In this document: piece by piece, positions 21,208 through 33,099 of the stretch
Layout of the letters: every line of letters starts with the position of its first letter
How positions within the stretch are numbered: position 1 is the stretch's first letter
DNA from: an uncultured Ruminococcus sp.
Lineage (GTDB): Bacteria; Bacillota; Clostridia; Oscillospirales; SIG627
Length of the DNA: 37,704 bases
Direction of reading: 5' to 3'
NCBI GenBank assembly: GCA_902796545.1
Contig: CADBPF010000047.1
Span: 1 to 37,704, forward strand
Translations under genes and position numbers: made by a program
The notes under the pieces: generated by a model
Seen by the model: the letters and a program-made list of their open reading frames with translations, nothing else
Database searches by the model: none
Told to the model about the DNA's origin: nothing

Positions 21208-22725
21208 TTAAATGCGTGATTTCTTGATTTCGCGTAATTGATACGGCGTCTCTCCGTCCGGGTCCGTGGTCTCGAGCATCGTCACGGGGTCGTTTTCCAG
21301 TTCCCGGAACAGTTTTCCGAGATGCGTGACGCAGATCCAGCTTGCGCCGAGCGCGTTTAGGTAGCGTAAAACGTCGGCAAGTCCTTTTGCGCCTTCCTCA
21401 TACGCGGTGGTCTGGAAGATCTCGTTGAGGAAGATCAGATCACCGCTTTGGACCTGATCGACCGTTTCGGAGAGCGCGCGCACCTCTTCTTCGAATCTCC
21501 CGACGCCCGCGCCGACGGAAACCGCTTTTTCCGCGCTGGCAAAGAGCGTTCTGATCGAGTGCTGCGGGAAGATCTGCGCAGACCTTGCAAGCACCGGCAG
21601 TCCGTTTTGCGCAAAGACGAGCGCGGTGGCAAGCGCGCGCAGATAGACCGTTTTGCCGCTGTTGTTCTCGCCGCGGATCAGGATCCCGCCGCTTTGCGAG
21701 GGAAAGATCGCGTCGTTTCCGATGACCGTCTTCTGCCCGTAGGACGACAGGGAAAGCACGAGGTCTTTGAGTCCGTGGATCTCGGTCGGGCGGTCGCTCA
21801 CCGGGGTCGCGGCGCAATAGGGGATCCCGTAGCGGTCAAAGGACTGCACCAGATAAAGCGCGACCCGATAGAACGATAATTCAACGGAAACGCCGCTAAA
21901 CTCCGTGAGCAAGCCGGACAGAACGCGATTCAAGATCTCCGCCATTTTATTATAGATCCCGCCGAGCAGCTGGTTGCGCAGGACGTTGTCCGGATCCGAA
22001 AGCGCGATCGAGGCGGGGACGTTGAGCGAGATCTGCGGCGAGCGGCGCTTTTTGCGCAGTTTGGAAAGATCTCCGTGGATCTTCAGATCCAGGCGGTCGA
22101 TGGAATGCACGTCGTAATTTGCGATCTTGCCGAACTCGTCTAACGTGAATTGCAGCTCGACAAGGTACTCGTCCGGAGTGGAGGCGATCAGATCCAGAAT
22201 CTCTTTTAAGCGCGCATAAGAGGGATGTTCGATCAGCTCGTGCAGGCGCAAGATCAGAGATCGAAACGCCGCGGACTCCAGCGGTTGCTTTTCCAGGATC
22301 TGCAGGATCCCGGTCAACTGCTCGAAGGTCGTTTGGATCATATTGGCGGTCATGATCAACACGCCGAGCGAGGTGCGGTATTTCGCGTCCGAACCGAATT
22401 TTGCCGCGGTATGCACGGAGATCGAACTTTTCTCCAACTGAAATTGCTGCGGCAAAAGATCAAAGGCGTTCCATGCGGCGCTCAAACGGTCGAAGAAGAG
22501 GGGAAACTTCTGAAAATCGGAAAAGACCTCGGCGCGACAGACGCTGTTTTCCGCTTTTTCGGGCACCCTGGAAAGTACGTTGAGAAAATAGTTTACGGTC
22601 TTTGCGTCCAAAGCGGTCCCGATCGCGTCTTTGATCGTATTATCCAGCATCAGATCGCGGATCAGCGCACGATCCGGCTCGCGCTCCGGCTCTTCGATCT
22701 GCCAGAGCAAGCTACGCTTTTTCAC
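21208..22725 (-). CDS. MutS-like ATPase B (MutS domain V family)
   Basis: A 505-residue protein with a helical MutS core-like region (about 30-320) and a C-terminal MutS ABC-type ATPase domain. Walker A is GENNSGKTVYLR near residue 353-364; the Walker B region reads LIFLNEIFQTT near 430-440, with Asn where MutS has Asp, but the catalytic Glu kept. The signature helix and a CVTHLGKLF switch (H-loop) follow. There is no mismatch-binding domain I, no connector and no Smr nuclease, so it is neither MutS1 nor MutS2. The start is GTG at 22725 with AAAGGAGG upstream. It overlaps its paralogue by 14 bases. Confidence 0.85.
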   Translation of the reverse strand: MKKRSLLWQIEEPEREPDRALIRDLMLDNTIKDAIGTALDAKTVNYFLNVLSRVPEKAENSVCRAEVFSDFQKFPLFFDRLSAAWNAFDLLPQQFQLEKSSISVHTAAKFGSDAKYRTSLGVLIMTANMIQTTFEQLTGILQILEKQPLESAAFRSLILRLHELIEHPSYARLKEILDLIASTPDEYLVELQFTLDEFGKIANYDVHSIDRLDLKIHGDLSKLRKKRRSPQISLNVPASIALSDPDNVLRNQLLGGIYNKMAEILNRVLSGLLTEFSGVSVELSFYRVALYLVQSFDRYGIPYCAATPVSDRPTEIHGLKDLVLSLSSYGQKTVIGNDAIFPSQSGGILIRGENNSGKTVYLRALATALVFAQNGLPVLARSAQIFPQHSIRTLFASAEKAVSVGAGVGRFEEEVRALSETVDQVQSGDLIFLNEIFQTTAYEEGAKGLADVLRYLNALGASWICVTHLGKLFRELENDPVTMLETTDPDGETPYQLREIKKSRI

Positions 22726-24160
22726 GGATTTTCCTCCTTTCCCGCAAGGAATCCGCGTCTAAGCGGTATTTGCGCAGTACGTCTTCGGCAAAGGAAGAAC
22801 GCAGACCGGTGTTTTTGGCGATCTTGTAGCTGCGCTTATGCTCCGCGCCGTCTTCCACAACGGTACTCAAAACCGAAAAACCGTGGCCGTTCACGCCGTG
22901 AAAATGCGTGACGAACAGCCCGAATACGCCCTCCGACTTACAGCGCTCGGCACATTCCAGAGCCAGCACGAGCCCCTTTTGCTCGTTTGCGCCGGAAAAG
23001 GTTTCGTTGAAGAATAAAAACGGGTGTTTGCCGCCGGCAAACAGGGCGTTGACGCGCGCCTCTTCTTCGACAAGCCGCCCGCTGTCCGCCACCTCGTCTT
23101 TCGGGAAGTGCGTGCCGATAAAGTCGAACGGATACACGCGCGCAGACTCGGCAAAAACCGGGCAGCCGGCAAGCGCAAGGGTCAGATTGATCGCCGCGGC
23201 GCGCAAATAGGTGGTTTTCCCGCCGCCGTTCGCGCCGGTCAGAAAGGCAAAGCAATCTTCGGCGGTAAAGGAAATATCGTTCGGCACGATCGTCGTTTCG
23301 GGACCGGAAAGCAGACTTGCGTCGTAGGCGTTTTTGCAAGCGTAAACGGGAGTTTTGGAAAGGTCCGGGATCGAGTTCGGGATCCCGCGCGCGGCGGCAA
23401 GCTCGTCCAATTCCCGGATCGACTTGTAAAACGCGATCTGGTGGCGGTATTCGCAGATCCCGGCGTCCAGTTCCGTTTCGAAATCCGCGATCAGCTTGCG
23501 GCAGAGGGCGAATTGCTCGGGATAGACTCGAAATAACGCCTCCGCGAGCGCGGGCGGCAGATCCACCGTCCGCTGACCCGGAAGCGAGAGATCGCACAGA
23601 TCGAGCGCGCCGGCGCAGGAATGTAATTCCGCCATCAAGCCCTCGCTTTGCTCGTCCGCACACACGAAAACGCCGATCGGCGAGAGATAGGCGCGACTGG
23701 TCAGAATGTCAGAAATCGAGTCTTTTAGCGCGTCAAGCGCCGTATCGAGGCGCCGGATGACCGGCAAAAGATCTTGAAAATATTGTAAAAACGCATGGAC
23801 AAAACCGCCGCCGTCTTTCAATAAGACCGCGCGCCTGACGGTCTCCGAAAAGCGTTCGGCATACGCGTAAAACGACAATAAGCGCTCGCACTCGTTGCGG
23901 GCGGCGGCAAAGCGCTGATAGGCCTGATAGGTATGGGTCAGAGCGTCCTGCAGATCAAAAAACGGCGTCCGGAAATCGGGGTCCTCCAGACACCGGAACA
24001 TCGCTCCACGCGAACGGATCTCCGAGGCGGTGCAGGGGATCCGCAAAATCTCCGCCGCGCGCTCGCCGAAAAGCGTATCCAGGCGCACGTCGGAAAAGAG
24101 CGCGGCGTCGTGGTGCGCGCGCTGATCGGTCGGGCTGTCAAACAAAATCGAAGGGATCAT
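22712..24160 (-). CDS. MutS-like ATPase A (MutS domain V family)
   Basis: A 482-residue MutS-related ATPase, distantly similar to the product of the next gene. The N-terminal half is helical (lever/core-like); the ATPase domain has Walker A TGANGGGKTTYLR near 307-318, a RLVEEEARV stretch, the Walker B region FLFFNETFSGANEQKG near 380-395 (Asn for Asp again, Glu kept) and an FVTHFHG H-loop. No mismatch-recognition or nuclease domain is present. The two products are of similar size and coupled in translation, so a heterodimer is likely. ATG at 24160 follows AGGTGG. A TATAAT -10 lies at 24187-24192. Confidence 0.85.
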   Translation of the reverse strand: MIPSILFDSPTDQRAHHDAALFSDVRLDTLFGERAAEILRIPCTASEIRSRGAMFRCLEDPDFRTPFFDLQDALTHTYQAYQRFAAARNECERLLSFYAYAERFSETVRRAVLLKDGGGFVHAFLQYFQDLLPVIRRLDTALDALKDSISDILTSRAYLSPIGVFVCADEQSEGLMAELHSCAGALDLCDLSLPGQRTVDLPPALAEALFRVYPEQFALCRKLIADFETELDAGICEYRHQIAFYKSIRELDELAAARGIPNSIPDLSKTPVYACKNAYDASLLSGPETTIVPNDISFTAEDCFAFLTGANGGGKTTYLRAAAINLTLALAGCPVFAESARVYPFDFIGTHFPKDEVADSGRLVEEEARVNALFAGGKHPFLFFNETFSGANEQKGLVLALECAERCKSEGVFGLFVTHFHGVNGHGFSVLSTVVEDGAEHKRSYKIAKNTGLRSSFAEDVLRKYRLDADSLRERRKIREKA

Positions 24161-24282: not shown

Positions 24283-24311
24283 TTGACAAGCACTATCGAA
24301 GGTGATACACT
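24283..24311 (+). promoter_or_regulatory. Probable promoter of the large helicase-like gene
   Basis: TTGACA (24283-24288), a 17-base spacer with a TGA extension, then TACACT (24306-24311). A TATACT at 24311-24316 is an alternative -10 but is 22 bases from the -35. The 208-base gap between the divergent genes (24161-24368) holds both promoters and nothing else that I can recognise. Confidence 0.65.
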
Positions 24312-24368
24312 ATACTTAGTTATTTTTACAGTTTCGACGCCCATATCTTGTGTTTATCGGAGGAACCC

Positions 24369-27300
24369 ATGGATTACGATTTCCGTCTTGGTTTTGAGTG
24401 CCCGGGTTATTATTCGCTGCCGGTCCTGCTGATAAAGCAGGAGGCGGTCTATGATCTCTTTGCGATCAACGATTCCGAGGCGCCCGTGGAAAATCTCAAA
24501 CTCACGATCTCCTCGGAGCCCGCCTTCTTCCAGACGAAGGTGATCGATCTCGGAACGCTCAACCCGCATACCAAACGGATCTTTCCGGATCTTTGTCTGG
24601 ACTACGACCGCACGTATCTTTCCTACCTTGCCGAAAACACCACCTCCAAGATCACGGCCGAGCTTTCTCAAAACGGGAAAACCGTTGCTTCCTTTTCCTT
24701 AAATTGCGACCTGATCCGCTATTGCTGCTGGGGCGGCGTGCATTTCGCGCCGGAATTACTTGCGACGCTCATCACCCCGCAGCAGCCGCAGATCCAGGAT
24801 CTGCGCAGGGAACTGAAAACGATCCTGCGCAAAAAGCGAGTCACGCTCGCTTCCGACGGCTATCAGGACCATCTGGACGCAGAGTCCGTCCGGAAAGACG
24901 CGACCGCGCTCATGAACGCGGTCTTTGAACTCGTGCGCGGCGCGGGGATCATTTATTCGATCCAGCCGCCGGAGCTTACGCGGCGCGGCGCGGCGATCTC
25001 CATGCCGGAGGAAACGCTTGCGAAAAAATCGGGCAACGCTCTGGACGCCGCGATCCTGTTCTGCTCCTGCGCGGAATGCTTCGGACTCAACCCCGTTTTG
25101 CTGTTGAGCGGAGAATACGTTTTAGTGGGCGCGTTTTTGGAGCCCTGTTCCTTTGCCTGCCCGGTGATGGACGATCTCGGCTCCGTTTTGGAGGCAGTAG
25201 GCGCCAAGAAACTTTTACTGATCGATTCCACCTCGATGGCAAACGGCACCTCGTTCGGGTTTGCCGCCGCCTGCAAGATGGGAGAAAAGCGCATCCGCGA
25301 GTGCGAGGAGTTCTATTTCGCCTTGGATCTGTTTGCCTGCCGTGCGCAGGGGATCCGGCCTTTGGAAAACCGCGTGGTGTATGAAGACGGGATCCATTTT
25401 GAAAAACCGGGTCTAAACGAGGAAGACGACGACGTTTTCCAGAACGACACCGCGATCGCCGAGGCGAGCCCCGATCCTTTCGATCAGCATATCAAAGAGA
25501 TGCGCCGCGATCTGTGCGATTTGAGCGTATACCACAAGCTGATCTCTTTATCGGAAGAAGATCGCGTGCGGATTTTGATGATGGATCCCGTTCGCTTTCT
25601 GGCGCAGCTCGGAAGCGGCGATCCGCTTCCGCTGTTCGGTCCGGACGCGGCGTTCGGCTATCGCGGCAGCGCGGAGCTTTCCGCAAAAACGCTCGATCTT
25701 TTTGAAAAGCGCGCATCCGCGTTTCCGACCACGGAAGGCAGAGTCTGCCTCTGCTTCGGGCTGATAAAATGGAAGTTGAAGGAAGCGCAGGGCGAGGCCC
25801 CGCTTCTGATCGTCCCCGTATCCGTCCGCCGTGAGCGCGGCCGCATTGCGTCCATGACCGCGGACGTGACGCCGGGACTGCTCAACGGCGCGCTCTTAAC
25901 CTTTTTGAACGAGTATTTCGCAACGGATCTTTCCGTGCTCAAAGAGATCGCCTTTGCCGAATTTTCTGATCACGTCAAGCAGATCCTGATGCGCGCGCGC
26001 GCCTTATTATATGAAAACTCCGCGCTGACCTTTTTGGACAACGAGGTCTTCTTCGCGCTTTTGCAGACCGGATCGCTCGAAACGCTCGACGCGCTCTCCG
26101 TCGCCCGCCTGGAAGGGCATCCGCTGTCCCGGGCGATCTGCGCGGACGAGGCGATCGAAGAAAACGCTTCGGAGCCGCTGCCGAGCCTTGCCGACGCCGC
26201 GCCCGCGGTGCTCTCGCTTCCGTACTTTTTGGATCGTGACGCGTACGACGTGTGCGCGAGTCTGCAGACCCGCAATTTCACGCTCGTTTCCGCACCGCCG
26301 CGGGGAGGGAAGACCCGACTCGGCATGGCGCAGGCGTTTGCCACGCTCAATCATCCCGAACAGACCGTTTTATACGTGACCGGTGAAAACGGCAACCCGG
26401 CGGACGCGTTTCACGCGCTGCGCCGTGCGGGCCTGGACGATCTTGCCATTTCGCTTTCCCAGTCCTCTCCGGCGCCCGCCGACTTTTCCATGAAAGCGTC
26501 GGATCTTTTCCCGACGGAGGATTTCTTCACGAAATGCGCTTTGTACGCCGACGCGCTCAAAAAGCTTTCCGGCTATGAGCCGGTGCTGAATCACACGCTG
26601 CCCTGCGGTTTTACGCTGGAGGAAGCGATCTTCGTCTTCGATCACGTGCGCAAGGCGCCGGATTGCCTGCATTTTGCCCCGGAAACGGTCGGGAATATGT
26701 CCAAGGAAACGGCAAGTGCGCACGGCAGCGTGATCCGCGACCTTGCAAACGCGCTTTCTTCGATCTCGACTCCGGTCGGTCATCCCTTACGTTTCGTCGG
26801 AACGCGCAGCTTCTCCTATGAGATCAAGGCGGAAGCCACGCGCCTGATCGACGAATACATGAAGAAATCAAAAGAGTATCTCACTTTCCTGCGCGGCTCC
26901 TGCGCCGGACTGTTCGCCAAAGCGAAACCGAAAAACGCCAAAGAAGAAGCGGCGTTTCTGGAACTGTTGCGTCTGATCGGCGAAAAGCGCGGGATCAACG
27001 AGTGCTATTTTGAAAAGCCCGTGATCGCAAGCGATCTTGCCAAGGCTTCCACGGTGCTCGCATACGGCAAAGAGCTTTGCGGGATGCGCGAGGAGATTTT
27101 ACAGACCTTCCAGCCCGCGGCGTTCGATCTGCCCGTCAAGGATATGATCGTTTCCTGGCGCGAAGCCGAGCACAAGAAGGGCGGCGCCAAGCGGAAAGTG
27201 CAAAAAGAGATCATCAAAAAACTCGTTTCCGTCAGCCGCGTCAAGCTCGAGGGCCCGGTGCCGGATCTGCTCTATCAGCTGGAAAAATATATCAATTATC

Positions 27301-29360
27301 AGAGCTATCTGGAAGAAAACGCTTCGCTCTTGCAGCGCCTGTTTGGCGTGGACGTTTCCGCCCCGCAAAACGACACGGGCGAGACCTGGGATCGCTTGAA
27401 CGAGCTGTTTGTCGATTGCGGCGAATTTGACCGCTATCTGGAACAATTAGGCGACGATCACGCGTCTCTGCGCCTGCTTGCGGCAAGGCTGATGCATTCC
27501 TTTACCGCGGAGGACGCCTCCCGCGCCGCGTCCTTGCGGGAAGCGATCTTGGAAATGCAGGCGGAGCTGTATCAGGTCAGACAGCGCTTCATCCATTACG
27601 TGAAACTCGATTTCGACGCGCTGTGCCGCGACCACGAGGAAGATCTCTACGAGATCCTGCCGAAACTGCAAAAAGAACTGCGCGAAGGTCTGGACGGGCT
27701 CCAGCAATGGGTGGACTGGCTGATCGCCTCCGACGAGGCGAGAGCGCAAGGCTTTTCACAGATCCTGGAAGAGATCGCCGCGGGGCACCTGCACGGCGAC
27801 GATCTGGAAGACGCCTACACGCGCGCGTTTTTCTCCGCGCTGTGTGAATACGTGTTCGTGGTCAATCCGATCCTCGGCGAGCTTTCCGGTCATTCCTACA
27901 CCGAAAAACTGGATTCGCTTGCCGCGCTGCGCGAGGAGATCTACGATCTTGCCAAGAAAGAGCTTTGCGCCAAACACCTGCGCCGTTATACCTCGTTTTT
28001 GGAGGAGAGCGGCTGGGATCCCTCTCAAAAATTCGATCTCACCCGTTTGAACTTTGCGCGCTTCTGCTATCAGACCTCCTGCCGCTATCCGATCCTCGTC
28101 GCCAACGCGAAAGACGCGATCGCGTATCTGAACAATACGCCGACCCGCTTCGGGCTGATCGTTTTGGACGACGCGCACACGCTGTCTTTGTCCTCGGCGC
28201 TCGCCCTGATCCCGCGCGCGCAGAAAGTGCTGATCCTCGGCACGCCGCGCTGCGCCCTTCATAACCGCGTGTTCGATCCGGTCCGCATCTCTGCGACTCA
28301 TCGCCTGCGCGAGGGCGGCGGAATGTTCTGGGAGCACGCCGTTGCCTCGATCCGACCGATGCAGCTTAGCCGCGTCCGCGCGACGAACGCGGCGCTTTAT
28401 GAACTTTTGGATCTTTGCGCAAAACAGGCGTACCCCGCGATCCCTTTTATCCGGCGCGAGGATTCGATCCGCTGCGTCAAGACGACCGGACTTTACGACG
28501 TTGCCACCGGGATCAACCTTCAGGAGGGCATGCAGACCGTGGAAGAAGCCCTGCGGCTGATGCGGGAATGCGCCGAATCCGGACGGGCACTTTCGCTCGG
28601 GATCTGTGCCGCAACGGGCGCGCAGAAGCTTTTGATCCTGCAAACGATGGCAAAGAAGCTGCGCGAAGAACCGGCGCTCTACGAGGTTTTGCGTTCCGCG
28701 TCCGAGCCGTTTTACGTGATCTCGCCCGACGAGACCGTTCCCGCCGGACGCGACGTGATCTTGTGGTCGCTCACCGTCGGCGCGAACAAAGCCACCGAAC
28801 GGCCGACGAGAGCCCTTGCGCCGATCAACGATCCGGACGCGCAAAGCAAGGTCCTTGCGATCCTGACCGCCGCGCGCAAAGAACTCTGCCTGATCCATTC
28901 GATCAATCTGGATCTGCTGCGCGATTTCGCGCTTTCCACCCCGGGCGCGCGTGCTTTTGAGCGCGTCGTCCGCGCGATTTTGGAACGGGATTCCGGCGCC
29001 TGCGCCGTGGTCGATCGCGCGTCGGAAAGCGATAACCCGATTTTAGCGCGCGTAGCCGTTGATCTGGAAAGCCGCGGCTATTCGGTCTCCAAGCTCGTTT
29101 CCTGCGGCGATTTTGCGATCGACCTTGTGGCGCGCAAACCCGAAGATGGCGATTTTGCCCTGGCGCTTTTGTTCGACGACACGATCACCGCGTCCTGCAA
29201 AGGCCACGTCTTGGGCGAGACCGGACTGTTCGACGCGATCCGCGCCCGCGGATACGTGCCGTTCCACCTGCGCTCCGCCGACTGGTTTGTCGATGATCAG
29301 GGCGTTTTGGATGCGATCTACGCGCTTTTGCCAAAGAAAAGCAAAAACTCCAAGAAATAA
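24369..29360 (+). CDS. Very large degenerate DUF4011/SF1 helicase-nuclease-like protein
   Basis: A 1663-residue protein. Its layout follows DUF4011 helicases: a transglutaminase-like segment (about 220-260, SGNALDAAILFCSC...GLNP...GEYVLVGAFL) where relatives have Cys and His but this has Ala and Tyr; a DUF4011-like stretch (377-415); an LCFGLIKW...APLLIVPV stretch (457-490); a P-loop APPRGGKTR near 641-650; a long helical insert; motif II as VLDDAH (near 1265) with VLILGTPR after it; DVILWSLTVG (near 1462); and a Vsr-like C-terminus (1569-1643, DFAIDL...LALLFDD...SADWF) lacking the usual IExDG. The Walker Lys remains. ATG at 24369 has GGAGG upstream. Function unknown; assignment by pattern, not by search. 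Confidence 0.75.
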   Translation: MDYDFRLGFECPGYYSLPVLLIKQEAVYDLFAINDSEAPVENLKLTISSEPAFFQTKVIDLGTLNPHTKRIFPDLCLDYDRTYLSYLAENTTSKITAELSQNGKTVASFSLNCDLIRYCCWGGVHFAPELLATLITPQQPQIQDLRRELKTILRKKRVTLASDGYQDHLDAESVRKDATALMNAVFELVRGAGIIYSIQPPELTRRGAAISMPEETLAKKSGNALDAAILFCSCAECFGLNPVLLLSGEYVLVGAFLEPCSFACPVMDDLGSVLEAVGAKKLLLIDSTSMANGTSFGFAAACKMGEKRIRECEEFYFALDLFACRAQGIRPLENRVVYEDGIHFEKPGLNEEDDDVFQNDTAIAEASPDPFDQHIKEMRRDLCDLSVYHKLISLSEEDRVRILMMDPVRFLAQLGSGDPLPLFGPDAAFGYRGSAELSAKTLDLFEKRASAFPTTEGRVCLCFGLIKWKLKEAQGEAPLLIVPVSVRRERGRIASMTADVTPGLLNGALLTFLNEYFATDLSVLKEIAFAEFSDHVKQILMRARALLYENSALTFLDNEVFFALLQTGSLETLDALSVARLEGHPLSRAICADEAIEENASEPLPSLADAAPAVLSLPYFLDRDAYDVCASLQTRNFTLVSAPPRGGKTRLGMAQAFATLNHPEQTVLYVTGENGNPADAFHALRRAGLDDLAISLSQSSPAPADFSMKASDLFPTEDFFTKCALYADALKKLSGYEPVLNHTLPCGFTLEEAIFVFDHVRKAPDCLHFAPETVGNMSKETASAHGSVIRDLANALSSISTPVGHPLRFVGTRSFSYEIKAEATRLIDEYMKKSKEYLTFLRGSCAGLFAKAKPKNAKEEAAFLELLRLIGEKRGINECYFEKPVIASDLAKASTVLAYGKELCGMREEILQTFQPAAFDLPVKDMIVSWREAEHKKGGAKRKVQKEIIKKLVSVSRVKLEGPVPDLLYQLEKYINYQSYLEENASLLQRLFGVDVSAPQNDTGETWDRLNELFVDCGEFDRYLEQLGDDHASLRLLAARLMHSFTAEDASRAASLREAILEMQAELYQVRQRFIHYVKLDFDALCRDHEEDLYEILPKLQKELREGLDGLQQWVDWLIASDEARAQGFSQILEEIAAGHLHGDDLEDAYTRAFFSALCEYVFVVNPILGELSGHSYTEKLDSLAALREEIYDLAKKELCAKHLRRYTSFLEESGWDPSQKFDLTRLNFARFCYQTSCRYPILVANAKDAIAYLNNTPTRFGLIVLDDAHTLSLSSALALIPRAQKVLILGTPRCALHNRVFDPVRISATHRLREGGGMFWEHAVASIRPMQLSRVRATNAALYELLDLCAKQAYPAIPFIRREDSIRCVKTTGLYDVATGINLQEGMQTVEEALRLMRECAESGRALSLGICAATGAQKLLILQTMAKKLREEPALYEVLRSASEPFYVISPDETVPAGRDVILWSLTVGANKATERPTRALAPINDPDAQSKVLAILTAARKELCLIHSINLDLLRDFALSTPGARAFERVVRAILERDSGACAVVDRASESDNPILARVAVDLESRGYSVSKLVSCGDFAIDLVARKPEDGDFALALLFDDTITASCKGHVLGETGLFDAIRARGYVPFHLRSADWFVDDQGVLDAIYALLPKKSKNSKK

Positions 29361-29382: not shown

Positions 29383-29432
29383 CCGGGCATCCGAATACCC
29401 TTGTTGCGGGGGTGATCGGATGTCCGGTTTTT
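29383..29432 (+). terminator. Terminator-like hairpin after the helicase-like gene, covering the next start codon
   Basis: A 12-bp stem with one G-U pair (29383-29394 with 29416-29427) and a 21-base loop is followed by TTTTT. The 3' arm contains the ATG (29420) of the TIGR04086 gene, and its Shine-Dalgarno sequence (GGGGGTG) is in the loop. Confidence 0.65.
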
Positions 29433-29881
29433 CAGTCAAAAAACGCCCGGAGCACGGGATTGTTTCGCGGCTATTCTTCGGCGTTTCCTGTGCGCTATGC
29501 TTTTCCGCGATCCTTACGCTTGTCTTTGCTTTGATCCTCTTAAAGATCCCGGGAGCGGAGGATCATATCGCGGTGTTGTCCTATGCGCTCTGCGCGCTTT
29601 GCGGTCTTGCGTGCGGCGCCGTCGCTTCCAGGATCTTAGAAAACAGGACCGCGTACGCCCTGCTTTGCGGACTGTTGTGCGGCGTTTTGCTTGCGGCGCT
29701 TTCCGTGATCTTCGGCGCGGCGCTGGAAAGCGGGACGGTCTTTTTTATCAAGGCGGCGGTTTATCTTGCCGCGACGGGGATCGGGACGATCCTTTGGAAA
29801 TTGATTTGCGCGCAAAAACGCAAAAGCCGCAAAGCGGATTTCGCATCCGCCCGAAAAAAAGTGAAAAAATTCCCGAAATAA
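29420..29881 (+). CDS. TIGR04086 family membrane protein (SCIFF-linked)
   Basis: A 153-residue membrane protein with four hydrophobic segments (about 17-43, 50-70, 80-102 and 107-128) rich in Gly, Ala, Cys and Leu, and a strongly basic C-terminal tail (KRKSRKADFASARKKVKK). Size, topology and position directly before the SCIFF peptide gene match the TIGR04086 family, which is described as closely linked to the SCIFF system. Its role is unknown; export or anchoring of the peptide would be a guess. The ATG lies inside a terminator-like hairpin, so expression from upstream transcripts is probably low. Confidence 0.8.
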   Translation: MSGFSVKKRPEHGIVSRLFFGVSCALCFSAILTLVFALILLKIPGAEDHIAVLSYALCALCGLACGAVASRILENRTAYALLCGLLCGVLLAALSVIFGAALESGTVFFIKAAVYLAATGIGTILWKLICAQKRKSRKADFASARKKVKKFPK

Positions 29882-30218: not shown

Positions 30219-31610
30219 TTGTCGAAACCACTCGTTCATCAATTCGTCATCGATTCGTTTCACCTGGTATTGGACGTCAATTCCGGCACGCTGCACGCGA
30301 TCAACGAGCTGTGCTCCAAACTGATCGACCGCCTTGCGCCGCCACTCGATCCCGAGCCGGATCCGGCGCTTTACTCCGAGCTATCCTCCTATCATCCGGA
30401 ACTGATCAAGGAAGCCTACGGGGAACTCTACGAGCTCTGGCGCAAGAATTTGCTTTGGGCGGACTGGGACGATTCGATCGCGATCGACTATGAAACGCTC
30501 CCGGTCAAGTCGCTTTGCCTGCACGTCGCGCACGACTGCAATATGCATTGCGAATATTGCTTTGCTTCCAGCGGAAACTATCACGGGAAGCGGGAGCTGA
30601 TGAGCGAAGAGACCGCGATTTCCGCGATGGAATTTCTGTTCCGGGAAAGCCGCGGCCGGCACAATCTGGAAGTGGACTTTTTCGGCGGCGAGCCGCTGCT
30701 CAATTTCGACGTGGTCAAAAAAACCGTCGAATATGCGCGCAAACGCGAAAAAGAGCTGAACAAGAACGTTCGCTTCACGCTGACGACCAACGCGCTCGGG
30801 CTCACGCACGAAATCTCGGACTACCTGAACGAGCAAATGTATAATCTCGTTTTCTCCCTGGACGGCAGACGGGAAGTGCACGAGTCCATGCGCCACGCAA
30901 ACGCCGGCGGCGAGACCTACGACCGGATTTTGGACAATATCCGCTATTGCGTGGAGCATCGCGGCGACAAATCCTGGTACGTGCGCGGCACGTTCACGCA
31001 CAAAAATCTTGATTTCCACAACGACGTGTTGGCGCTTGCCGAGGCGGGACTCAAGCACGTTTCCATCGAGCCGGTCGTCCTCCCGGACACGGATCCGCTT
31101 GCGATCAAGGAACGCGATCTGCACAAACTGCATTTGGAATACGAGCGTTTGGCAAGGGAACTGATCCGCCGCAGAAAGAACGCGCGGAAAAGCCCGCCCG
31201 GCATGGACTTTGAGTTTTTCCATTTTTCCATCGATCTCAACGGCGGCCCCTGCGCTTATAAGCGCTTGAAGGGATGCGGCAGCGGCACGGAATATCTCGC
31301 GGTCGCGCCGAGCGGCGATCTGTATCCCTGCCATCAGTTCGTGGGCAAGGAAGAATTCAAGCTCGGAACGGTGACGCGCGGGATCGTAAACCCGCAAGTC
31401 AAGGCCCGCTTTTGCCGCAGTCCCTTACGGGAAAACGATGACTGCAAGACTTGTTTTGCAAAATTCTTCTGCTCCGGCGGCTGCGCCGCGAACAATTACA
31501 ATACCAATCAGGATCTTTCCAAGCCTTATAAGATCGGCTGCGATCTGATGCGCAAGCGCCTGGAATGCGCGATGCTGATCAAAGCCTGTGAGGCGTTCGA
31601 GCAGGAATGA
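30219..31610 (+). CDS. scfB: SCIFF radical SAM maturase (thioether-forming, SPASM domain)
   Basis: A 463-residue radical SAM enzyme that installs thioether crosslinks in the SCIFF peptide. An N-terminal RiPP-recognition-like region (about 1-90, starting KPLVHQFVIDSFHLVLDV) is followed by the radical SAM motif CNMHCEYC (Cys107, 111, 114), FFGGEPLL, and a SPASM domain with the auxiliary-cluster cysteines in GPCAYKRLKGCGSG, LYPCHQF and CKTCFAKFFCSGGCAANNY. Length and motifs match the CteB/ScfB group. The start is TTG at 30219 behind AAAGGA; no ATG is available in frame before the catalytic motif. Two terminators upstream suggest it is made in small amounts relative to its substrate. Confidence 0.95.
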   Translation: MSKPLVHQFVIDSFHLVLDVNSGTLHAINELCSKLIDRLAPPLDPEPDPALYSELSSYHPELIKEAYGELYELWRKNLLWADWDDSIAIDYETLPVKSLCLHVAHDCNMHCEYCFASSGNYHGKRELMSEETAISAMEFLFRESRGRHNLEVDFFGGEPLLNFDVVKKTVEYARKREKELNKNVRFTLTTNALGLTHEISDYLNEQMYNLVFSLDGRREVHESMRHANAGGETYDRILDNIRYCVEHRGDKSWYVRGTFTHKNLDFHNDVLALAEAGLKHVSIEPVVLPDTDPLAIKERDLHKLHLEYERLARELIRRRKNARKSPPGMDFEFFHFSIDLNGGPCAYKRLKGCGSGTEYLAVAPSGDLYPCHQFVGKEEFKLGTVTRGIVNPQVKARFCRSPLRENDDCKTCFAKFFCSGGCAANNYNTNQDLSKPYKIGCDLMRKRLECAMLIKACEAFEQE

Positions 31611-31632
31611 ACGAGAAAGTAGAGGAGAAACC

Positions 31633-33099
31633 ATGAAACGCACCCTCCGAAATGGTCTTTGCCTGATCCTTGCGATCCTTTGTTTGTTTTGCTGTTTTGC
31701 CTGTGTCAAAGAGCCGGAAGGGCCGGATGATTCCACGGATCCGACGATTCAGCAGACCGAGCAGACGCCGACGATCACGCTTGCGGCTTCCACGCTTCAA
31801 TTGCCCGAGGAAAGCGCGTTCATTCTTTCCTTTTTCGAGGCGGACGAGAAGCTCGGCGGGATCAAAAGCGCCCGTCCGACCAGCGCAAACGCGTATCTCA
31901 ACGACCTGATCTTAGATCAGGTACAGCTGCAGATCAACTCGCTTGCCCCTTCTGATTCCAAGGCGGCGGCGTTGGACGTGTTGGCGGTCTATCAGGTGGA
32001 AAGCACCTATTCGTTTGAGTTTTTGGCGTATTACGACCTGTCTGACGGTTCCCGGAAGGTCGCGCCGTTCTTCGTTTCCACGGATTTCACCTCCGGAACG
32101 ATCCTGACGCTCGGAAATCGCATCCGTCTTTCAAACTTTGAAAACGGCAATGCAAACGAATACGTGCCCGCGTATCTTGCCGAGCATTTTGCCGGACAGT
32201 ATCAGGCGGATCTGATCCCCGCGATCACCGCGGACCAAAGGGACGGCTTCTACGTTTCCGCCGGCGGTGCGACGCTCGTCTATCCTGCGGGCTCGATCGG
32301 CAACACGGATCGCTTGAGCGTCTATATCGGCGACGCGGCGATCTCGCAGTACCGCAGGACCGGCACCACGCCCACCGAAGCGCCCGCCGATCTCTCCGGC
32401 GGGGACTACCAACCGGCCGGTGAAAACGAAAAAGTGGTCGCCATGACCTTTGACGACGGCCCCGGCGGCGCGAGCACCGCGCGGCTTTTGGACTATCTGG
32501 AACAGAACAATATCAAAGCGACGTTCTTTATCAACGCGAGAAATGTTGCAAATCTGGAAAACAGCGCCTCCGATCAAGCGCTTTTGCAGCGCATGGTCTC
32601 CTTGAATTGCGAGGTCGGGAATCACAGCTATTCGCACCCCTATTTCAGCAAGATCTCCGTGAGCGATCGGATTTACCAGGTCGAGCACAACGCGGAATTG
32701 ATCGAGGCGGCGTGCGGCGTGTATCCGAATCTGTTTCGCGCCCCCGGCGGGATCTTTATGAAGAATCAGGCCTATGCCGACGATTATTTCTTCATCGACT
32801 GGACGGTGGACGGCGGCAGCGGCACCGAGGACTGGCGCTGCAAGAACGACGGGGACGGCGGTGTGCACGTGGCAAACGCGTATCTGAATTATATCGGACC
32901 CGGATCGATCGTTTTGATGCACGATATTTATGAAAACTCCGTGTCCGCCGCGATCATTATTATGTCCAACCTCAAAGCGCAGGGGTATCGCTTCGTGACC
33001 GTCAGCGAATTATTGGATCTGAAAAACAAGGTCCCGGACGGCACGATCTACACCTCGCAGACGACTTCACGCAACTATATGTCTTACGAGCAGGGGTAA
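31633..33099 (+). CDS. Polysaccharide deacetylase (NodB domain), secreted
   Basis: A 488-residue exported carbohydrate esterase family 4 enzyme. A signal peptide (about 1-25) ends in a CCFAC stretch that could be a lipobox, though it is not a good match; a Thr/Gln-rich linker and an N-terminal domain of about 200 residues with DUF3298/RsiV-like flavour follow. The NodB domain carries TFDDGP (273-278), NHSYSHP (329-335), RAPGG, and IVLMHD near the end, i.e. catalytic Asp and zinc His residues. It probably removes acetyl groups from peptidoglycan. ATG at 31633 follows AGAGGAG, 22 bases after the maturase stop. Confidence 0.9.
   Translation: MKRTLRNGLCLILAILCLFCCFACVKEPEGPDDSTDPTIQQTEQTPTITLAASTLQLPEESAFILSFFEADEKLGGIKSARPTSANAYLNDLILDQVQLQINSLAPSDSKAAALDVLAVYQVESTYSFEFLAYYDLSDGSRKVAPFFVSTDFTSGTILTLGNRIRLSNFENGNANEYVPAYLAEHFAGQYQADLIPAITADQRDGFYVSAGGATLVYPAGSIGNTDRLSVYIGDAAISQYRRTGTTPTEAPADLSGGDYQPAGENEKVVAMTFDDGPGGASTARLLDYLEQNNIKATFFINARNVANLENSASDQALLQRMVSLNCEVGNHSYSHPYFSKISVSDRIYQVEHNAELIEAACGVYPNLFRAPGGIFMKNQAYADDYFFIDWTVDGGSGTEDWRCKNDGDGGVHVANAYLNYIGPGSIVLMHDIYENSVSAAIIIMSNLKAQGYRFVTVSELLDLKNKVPDGTIYTSQTTSRNYMSYEQG

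What the first reader, a model, noticed from the sequence alone, without database searches (positions are those of the whole stretch)
24369..29360. 1663-residue helicase-nuclease fusion in which almost every catalytic motif has decayed
The order of segments matches DUF4011-containing SF1 helicases with a C-terminal Vsr-like nuclease, a group often found in defence islands. Yet the transglutaminase-like Cys/His are Ala/Tyr, the P-loop begins APPRGGKT, motif II is DDAH instead of DEAS/DEAQ, the VxxGDPKQL motif is VLILGTPRCAL, and the nuclease IExDG is LLFDD. The frame is intact over 5 kb with good promoter and ribosome site, so this is not a decaying pseudogene. It may have become a scaffold, sensor or nucleic-acid clamp.
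Basis: partly seen in the sequence, partly recalled or inferred. Interest (0 to 1): 0.75.

Follow-up and report, generated by a model that had tools for sequence, protein, structure and literature searches.

The report
Dead helicase-nuclease kept across bacterial family
A very large bacterial protein descended from an anti-phage helicase-nuclease (ProA) has lost its motor and protease-like active-site motifs, yet gut Clostridia of all eight sampled genera in one family keep it intact under selection, often beside the working genes of another phage-defence system (Shango), so it probably acts as a binding platform rather than an enzyme.

Summary
The 1663-aa frame is intact, with a good promoter and ribosome site. 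It is a divergent homologue of the anti-phage protein ProA (DUF4011/SF1 helicase/MTES_1575 nuclease; 425 bits against NF058533, cutoff 1500). The residue losses are real: 16 of 16 canonical ProA proteins from the same order keep the N-domain Cys/His and helicase motifs I-VI; this protein and its orthologues do not. One correction: the Glu of ExDG is already missing in full-motor Clostridia/Bacteroides ProA, so that loss is older.

Twelve of 22 family genomes (10 of 11 near-complete; 8 of 8 genera) carry an orthologue, all motor-dead, all open over 4.2-5.1 kb, forming one clade, mostly at one syntenic site. A within-genus pair shows purifying selection. Conservation has inverted: the motor lost its constraint, the helical insertion and N-terminal domain kept more of theirs. 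In six genomes it is the fourth gene behind SngA-SngB-SngC (Shango), whose SngB/SngC motifs are intact; in this window Shango is absent but the pseudoenzyme remains.

Best reading: a ProA-derived pseudoenzyme acting as a non-catalytic platform, originally with Shango. The pseudoenzyme part is well supported; its function is inferred.

The parts
24283..24311 (+). sigma-70-type promoter TTGACA-17-TACACT with TG before the -10 hexamer
   Evidence: 10 of 12 matches; 3 sites found against 1.7 expected in the region, so position and quality count more than number
24359..24363 (+). Shine-Dalgarno GGAGG, 5 nt before ATG 24369
24369..29360 (+). ProA-derived pseudoenzyme, 1663 aa
24369..24743 (+). N-terminal beta-sandwich (Ig-like) domain, residues ~1-125
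   Evidence: AF2 model, block pLDDT mostly 77-96; weak Foldseek matches to beta-sandwich domains, none at E <= 1e-3
24744..25403 (+). alpha/beta N-domain, residues ~126-345; canonical Cys (GTCLD) is Ala in GNALD (222-226) and canonical His is Tyr in GEYVLVG (248-254)
25731..25928 (+). C-terminal part of DUF4011, residues ~455-520
   Evidence: Pfam PF13195, residues 461-513, E 0.005, below cutoff; canonical relative 153 bits
26232..26528 (+). RecA1 N-part with altered P-loop APPRGGKT (642-649)
26529..28073 (+). long all-helical insertion, residues ~721-1235; the part whose conservation is best kept in this clade
28074..28388 (+). RecA1 C-part, motif II DDAH (canonical DEAS) and motif III GTPRC (canonical GDPKQ)
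28389..28928 (+). RecA2; motif IV lost, motif V VPAGRD (canonical QGDERD), motif VI AILTAA (canonical VAVSRA)
29034..29324 (+). MTES_1575 (Vsr-like) nuclease remnant, LLFDD (canonical here LLDG), RDRE to VLGE; D1585 and D1603 kept
29420..29881 (+). TIGR04086/DUF3792 small membrane protein, 60 nt downstream; a small gene of similar size follows the pseudoenzyme in most members, with a TIGR04086 or DUF3792 match in several
30219..31610 (+). radical SAM protein, syntenic with G003
31588..33099 (+). polysaccharide deacetylase, syntenic with G014, G004, G005, G010, G006

Best explanation
The gene encodes a pseudoenzyme derived from the anti-phage helicase-nuclease ProA. An ancestor of this Clostridia family carried a ProA-like gene at a chromosomal site, very likely as the fourth gene after SngA-SngB-SngC. 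Its motor (motifs II-VI) and the N-domain Cys were lost before the family diversified, and selection since then has preserved the fold of the N-terminal domain and of the long helical insertion (shown). Most likely it works as a non-catalytic platform: it binds nucleic acid and/or partner proteins through those two regions, in this member perhaps with bound but slowly turned-over nucleotide, and positions or regulates a catalytic partner, in the ancestral layout the intact Shango ATPase SngB and helicase SngC (inferred). In this genome, where Shango is not detected, it must act alone or with another partner (inferred).
For: Homology: NCBIfam ProA 425 bits; profile of the clade matches canonical ProA over residues ~4-1648, E to 5e-256. 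Loss is clade-wide and complete: 12 of 12 family members lack motifs III, IV, VI, the Gln of motif V and the N-domain Cys; 16 of 16 canonical relatives keep them; no intermediates. One clade, support 98-99; genus pairs 100. Retention: 10 of 11 near-complete genomes, 8 of 8 genera. Selection: G008-G013 pN 0.25 against saturated pS 0.81, 10 gap positions per 1672 aligned codons; no stop in any of 12 frames of 1392-1713 aa. Conservation inverted: f1/canonical identity ratio 0.27-0.34 in the three motor segments, 0.59 in the N-domain, 0.85 in the helical insertion. Fold kept: Foldseek to Upf1/Ighmbp2/Dna2. Array with SngABC in six genomes, while SngC keeps TASGKTEA/DEIH/SAT/QRxGRSG and SngB keeps GxYGSGKS/DE.
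Against: No direct evidence of binding, partner or phenotype. Shango is not detected in this genome nor in G003 and G014, and lies elsewhere in G007, G015 and G012, so Shango cannot be the only partner. The protein evolves fast (34-60% identity within genera; SngC 66-79% in the pairs where both can be compared) and is missing from 10 of 22 genomes, mostly incomplete ones. Synonymous sites are saturated in all pairs, so no numerical dN/dS could be given.
Confidence: 0.5

Rival explanations
1. Domesticated housekeeping factor: the ex-defence protein now serves a cellular role (envelope, chromosome or nucleic-acid maintenance) unrelated to phage.
For: Inherited with chromosomal neighbours (small membrane protein, deacetylase, phosphoglycerate mutase); kept where Shango is absent in G000, G003 and G014; a second decayed lineage (f19) sits directly upstream of mreB.
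Against: Fast sequence turnover; absent from several species of genera g3 and g6; six members sit in an array with an anti-phage system.
Confidence: 0.25
2. Neofunctionalised enzyme: a different active site has arisen on the same fold, so it is not a pseudoenzyme.
For: A few polar residues are nearly invariant in the clade (N1383, E1386, Q1419, D1585, D1603) and the P-loop pattern survives in 6 of 12.
Against: All of those residues are equally conserved in canonical ProA, so nothing new is conserved only here; no clade-specific catalytic-looking cluster was seen.
Confidence: 0.1
3. Slow relaxed decay: a formerly useful defence gene drifting towards loss.
For: Fast evolution, DUF4011 region deleted in G007/G015, nuclease mostly lost in G012, gene absent in some species.
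Against: No broken frame among 12 genes of 1392-1713 codons at ~20% identity across genera; pN far below pS in G008-G013; promoter and ribosome site intact.
Confidence: 0.1
4. Inhibitor or decoy: a dominant-negative ProA mimic that binds substrates or partners of phage or rival helicases.
For: ProA-like shape without a motor.
Against: No canonical ProA was detected in the same genomes, so there is no resident enzyme to regulate; nothing direct.
Confidence: 0.05

Closest known systems
Anti-phage protein ProA (NCBIfam NF058533; DUF4011-SF1 helicase-MTES_1575-DUF3320)
   Same: Same domain order up to the nuclease, end-to-end profile match, same fold class, N-domain included
   Different: Scores 425 bits against a cutoff of 1500; helicase motifs II-VI, N-domain Cys/His and nuclease DG/RDR lost; ends after the nuclease (~1660 aa against ~1930 aa, the C-terminal DUF3320 region is missing)
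Hhe (NCBIfam NF042953, PADLOC Hhe)
   Same: DUF4011-helicase-Vsr-like nuclease superfamily
   Different: Only 75 bits of a 2000-bit cutoff; the Hhe-like G386 protein keeps ExDG and all motor motifs and lacks the N-domain Cys/His segment (its filing as Hhe-like is my inference)
Shango (SngA TerB, SngB BrxC/D-like ATPase, SngC Lhr-like helicase; PMC10250203)
   Same: Six orthologues lie directly behind SngABC in one operon-like array
   Different: Published Shango has three genes; here a fourth, motor-dead gene is attached in one family; in this window Shango itself is missing
PADLOC candidate PDC-S37
   Same: Best stretch is residues 746-1209, the helical insertion
   Different: Candidate model without assigned function

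Membership tests
ProA (NF058533) | Whole-protein score over the curated cutoff (1500 bits) | tested here: not met
   424.7 bits; canonical relatives in the order reach 2025-2106 bits
ProA (NF058533) | Homology along the domain order N-domain, DUF4011, RecA1, insertion, RecA2, MTES_1575 | tested here: met
ProA (NF058533) | Intact SF1 motor motifs | tested here: not met
   16/16 canonical have them, this protein and 11 orthologues do not
ProA (NF058533) | C-terminal DUF3320 region after the nuclease | tested here: not met
   DUF3320 at 1784-1813 in canonical G147; this protein ends at 1663, 11 residues after the nuclease match
ProA (NF058533) | Anti-phage activity | not testable with these tools
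   Needs phage challenge
DUF4011 (PF13195) | Pfam gathering score 22.2 | tested here: not met
   17.3 bits
Hhe | Score over cutoff 2000 bits and ExDG nuclease | tested here: not met
   75 bits; LLFDD
Shango | SngA, SngB and SngC in one array | tested here: not met
   SngB and SngC not detected in this genome; present in six relatives, PADLOC SngA 159, SngB 563, SngC 822 bits for G013
Transglutaminase-like protease domain | Profile match and Cys/His dyad | tested here: inconclusive
   No Pfam match even for canonical ProA; Cys/His invariant in 16 canonical, absent here; Foldseek only E >= 1.8e-3

The most novel reading that the evidence does not exclude
A whole bacterial family carries a vertically inherited, catalytically dead helicase-nuclease that has become a structural fourth subunit of Shango (a pseudo-ProA working with the intact SngB/SngC motors), and in lineages that later lost Shango, including this one, the pseudoenzyme was kept for a new cellular role; a second family did the same next to mreB.
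Probability: 0.3. Interest if true: 0.8.

Novelty: new variant of a known kind. Interest (0 to 1): 0.6.

Why it matters
Pseudoenzymes are familiar among kinases and proteases (general knowledge). A 1.4-1.7 thousand-residue prokaryotic helicase-nuclease that lost its whole motor across a family, yet stays under selection, would show that the non-motor parts of DUF4011-type anti-phage proteins have a separable function. That makes a practical test possible: the clade marks which regions (N-domain, helical insertion) matter without catalysis, and the six Shango-linked members name a candidate partner complex whose mechanism is, as far as I could find, still open.

Tried and rejected
Single-sequence scan of genome contigs found no relative, and the 12-row alignment had no stretch conserved enough for a scan; SngB was used instead. 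A common origin of the Shango-ProA pairing in G147 and in this family was considered and rejected: G147 SngC falls in another Shango clade, so the adjacency arose at least twice, and among the other fetched Shango loci no further ProA neighbour was seen. Formal dN/dS could not be estimated because pS is saturated. Universality was tested and weakened: the gene is in 12 of 22 genomes, and genomes lacking it also lack the downstream phosphoglycerate mutase. The grouping of f1 with f19 (support 100) may be long-branch attraction, so one or two losses remain open. An apparent 11,178-aa frame in G029 is a run of withheld N. Phage search gave one weak hit in an unannotated 11-kb record, not pursued. 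No paper found in the open-access library describes a Shango-ProA link or a motor-dead ProA; the origin of the name ProA was not found there. Searches were malformed queries of mine and returned nothing.

Full report
Observation. The frame 24369-29360 is open, 1663 aa, with an extended -10 promoter and GGAGG ribosome site. Pfam alone sees only weak MTES_1575 and DUF4011, but NCBIfam places the protein in the neighbourhood of the anti-phage protein ProA (424.7 bits in three stretches, cutoff 1500) and far from Hhe.

Are the motifs really lost, or misplaced? The same order contains sporadic canonical ProA (over 2000 bits). Aligned with 16 of them, the catalytic positions can be placed: canonical GTCLD / GHxFxG / GPPGTGKS / DEASQ / GDPKQ / WHYRSRH / QGDERD / VAVSRA (minor variants such as GPPGSGKS in G205) versus GNALD / GEYVLVG / APPRGGKT / DDAHT / GTPRC / none / VPAGRD / AILTAA here. 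Two qualifications: APPRGGKT still fits [AG]x4GK[ST] and the Walker-B Asp is kept, so nucleotide binding is possible; and the nuclease Glu of ExDG is missing already in Clostridia and Bacteroides ProA with intact motors, whereas three proteobacterial plasmid ProA and a Hhe-like protein keep it. The nuclease therefore changed first, the motor later.

The decay belongs to a family. The host genome (1.40 Mb, 96.9% complete) lies in a family (f1) of 22 held genomes; 12 have an orthologue, 10 of the 11 near-complete ones and all 8 genera. They are 1392-1713 aa, unbroken, about 20% identical to this protein. All 12 lack motifs III, IV, VI and the N-domain Cys; [AG]x4GK[ST] survives in 6 of 12 (G000, G004, G005, G008, G013, G014). 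They form one clade, genus pairs at 100. Rooted on a Hhe-like protein, they fall inside the ProA lineage that had already lost ExDG. A second family, f19, has an even more decayed version (228-275 bits with my profile) directly upstream of mreB.

Surroundings. In six family genomes the gene directly follows a TerB-domain protein, a BrxC/D-like ATPase and a DEAD/Lhr-like helicase, which PADLOC identifies as SngA, SngB and SngC (G013), the three genes of Shango described in PMC10250203. The Shango partners keep their motifs. Downstream come a small membrane protein (TIGR04086/DUF3792 in those that match), then in several genomes a polysaccharide deacetylase and a phosphoglycerate mutase. In this window the downstream side is kept, but upstream are two divergent MutS_V-only genes and no Shango; SngB and SngC are not detected anywhere in the genome. 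Two comparisons show Shango present or absent cleanly: PfkB-[SngABC]-pseudoProA in G004 against PfkB-pseudoProA in G014 (same genus), and DUF4956-[SngABC]-pseudoProA in G006 and G010 against DUF4956-pseudoProA in G003. The family SngC genes form one clade (support 86), so Shango looks ancestral to the family and lost or moved in some lineages. One distant genome, G147, has SngABC followed by a canonical ProA, but its Shango belongs to another clade. Among the 80 best SngB relatives in GTDB, a ProA-like neighbour was seen only in the five from this family.

Selection and where it acts. Between G008 and G013 (60% identity) pN is 0.25 against a saturated pS of 0.81, with 10 gap positions against 1672 aligned codons. 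Saturation prevents a numerical dN/dS but the direction is clear. The protein evolves faster than SngB/SngC of the same array (60% against 79-81%), though SngA is faster still (47%). Conservation has inverted: canonical ProA is most conserved in the motor (65-72% pairwise identity) and least in the helical insertion (25%); in the decayed clade the motor segments fall to 19-22%, ratio 0.27-0.34, while the insertion stays at 22%, ratio 0.85, and the N-domain at ratio 0.59. The clade-invariant residues are largely shared with canonical ProA and look structural.

Structure. AlphaFold2 with six sequences gave usable but not strong models (mean pLDDT 66 and 73; pTM 0.56 and 0.38). The C-part shows RecA1, a ~500-residue all-helical insertion, RecA2 and a Vsr-like alpha-beta end; Foldseek finds Ighmbp2, Dna2, Upf1, Senataxin and Aquarius (E 2e-5 and up). 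The N-part gave only weak matches.

Interpretation. Shown: homology to ProA, complete and clade-wide loss of motor motifs, maintenance of long open frames, purifying selection in one pair, linkage to Shango in six genomes, persistence without detectable Shango in three. Inferred: lack of activity, role as binding platform, partnership with SngB/SngC, possible nucleotide binding. I rate the pseudoenzyme statement at about 0.9 and the specific platform mechanism at about 0.5. Domestication for a cellular role is the main rival (0.25), strengthened by survival without Shango and by the f19 mreB arrangement.

Novelty. ProA, Hhe and Shango are known. I found no report in the searchable library of a motor-dead ProA clade or of a ProA-type fourth gene of Shango; subscription literature was not covered. 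New variant of a known kind.

Noticed in passing
L132:7220-13230, L133:2445-8480, L134:7113-13261, L063:6780-12778 (family f19): A separate, more decayed ProA-like protein of 1651-1696 aa lies directly upstream of mreB (Pfam MreB_Mbl in L132 and L134; same-size neighbour in L133 and L063), with a phosphoglycerate mutase next in L132.
   Followed up: partly
L171:4561-15517 (G147): SngA-SngB-SngC followed about 40 nt later by a canonical, full-motor ProA (1936 aa): an independent Shango-ProA array in another family.
   Followed up: partly
window 21208-24160: Two tandem ~490-aa proteins with only a MutS domain V match, divergent from the target gene, at the place where relatives carry Shango.
   Followed up: no
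canonical ProA loci L030, L058, L061, L062, L171, L208-L210, L292: Clostridia and Bacteroides ProA with complete helicase motifs have lost the Glu of the nuclease ExDG (LLDG/MCDG/IICDG), while proteobacterial plasmid ProA keep it; their nuclease may be altered or dead.
   Followed up: partly
L181, L182 (G285, G261): Shango loci with two tandem SngC-like helicase genes.
   Followed up: no
family f1 genomes G001, G002, G009, G011, G016-G021: The ten genomes without the pseudoenzyme also lack the phosphoglycerate mutase gene found downstream of it in relatives.
   Followed up: partly
G029:C1:1046000-1065000 (L066): An apparent 11,178-aa open frame is an artefact of withheld bases (9000 N in the fetched stretch).
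   Followed up: yes
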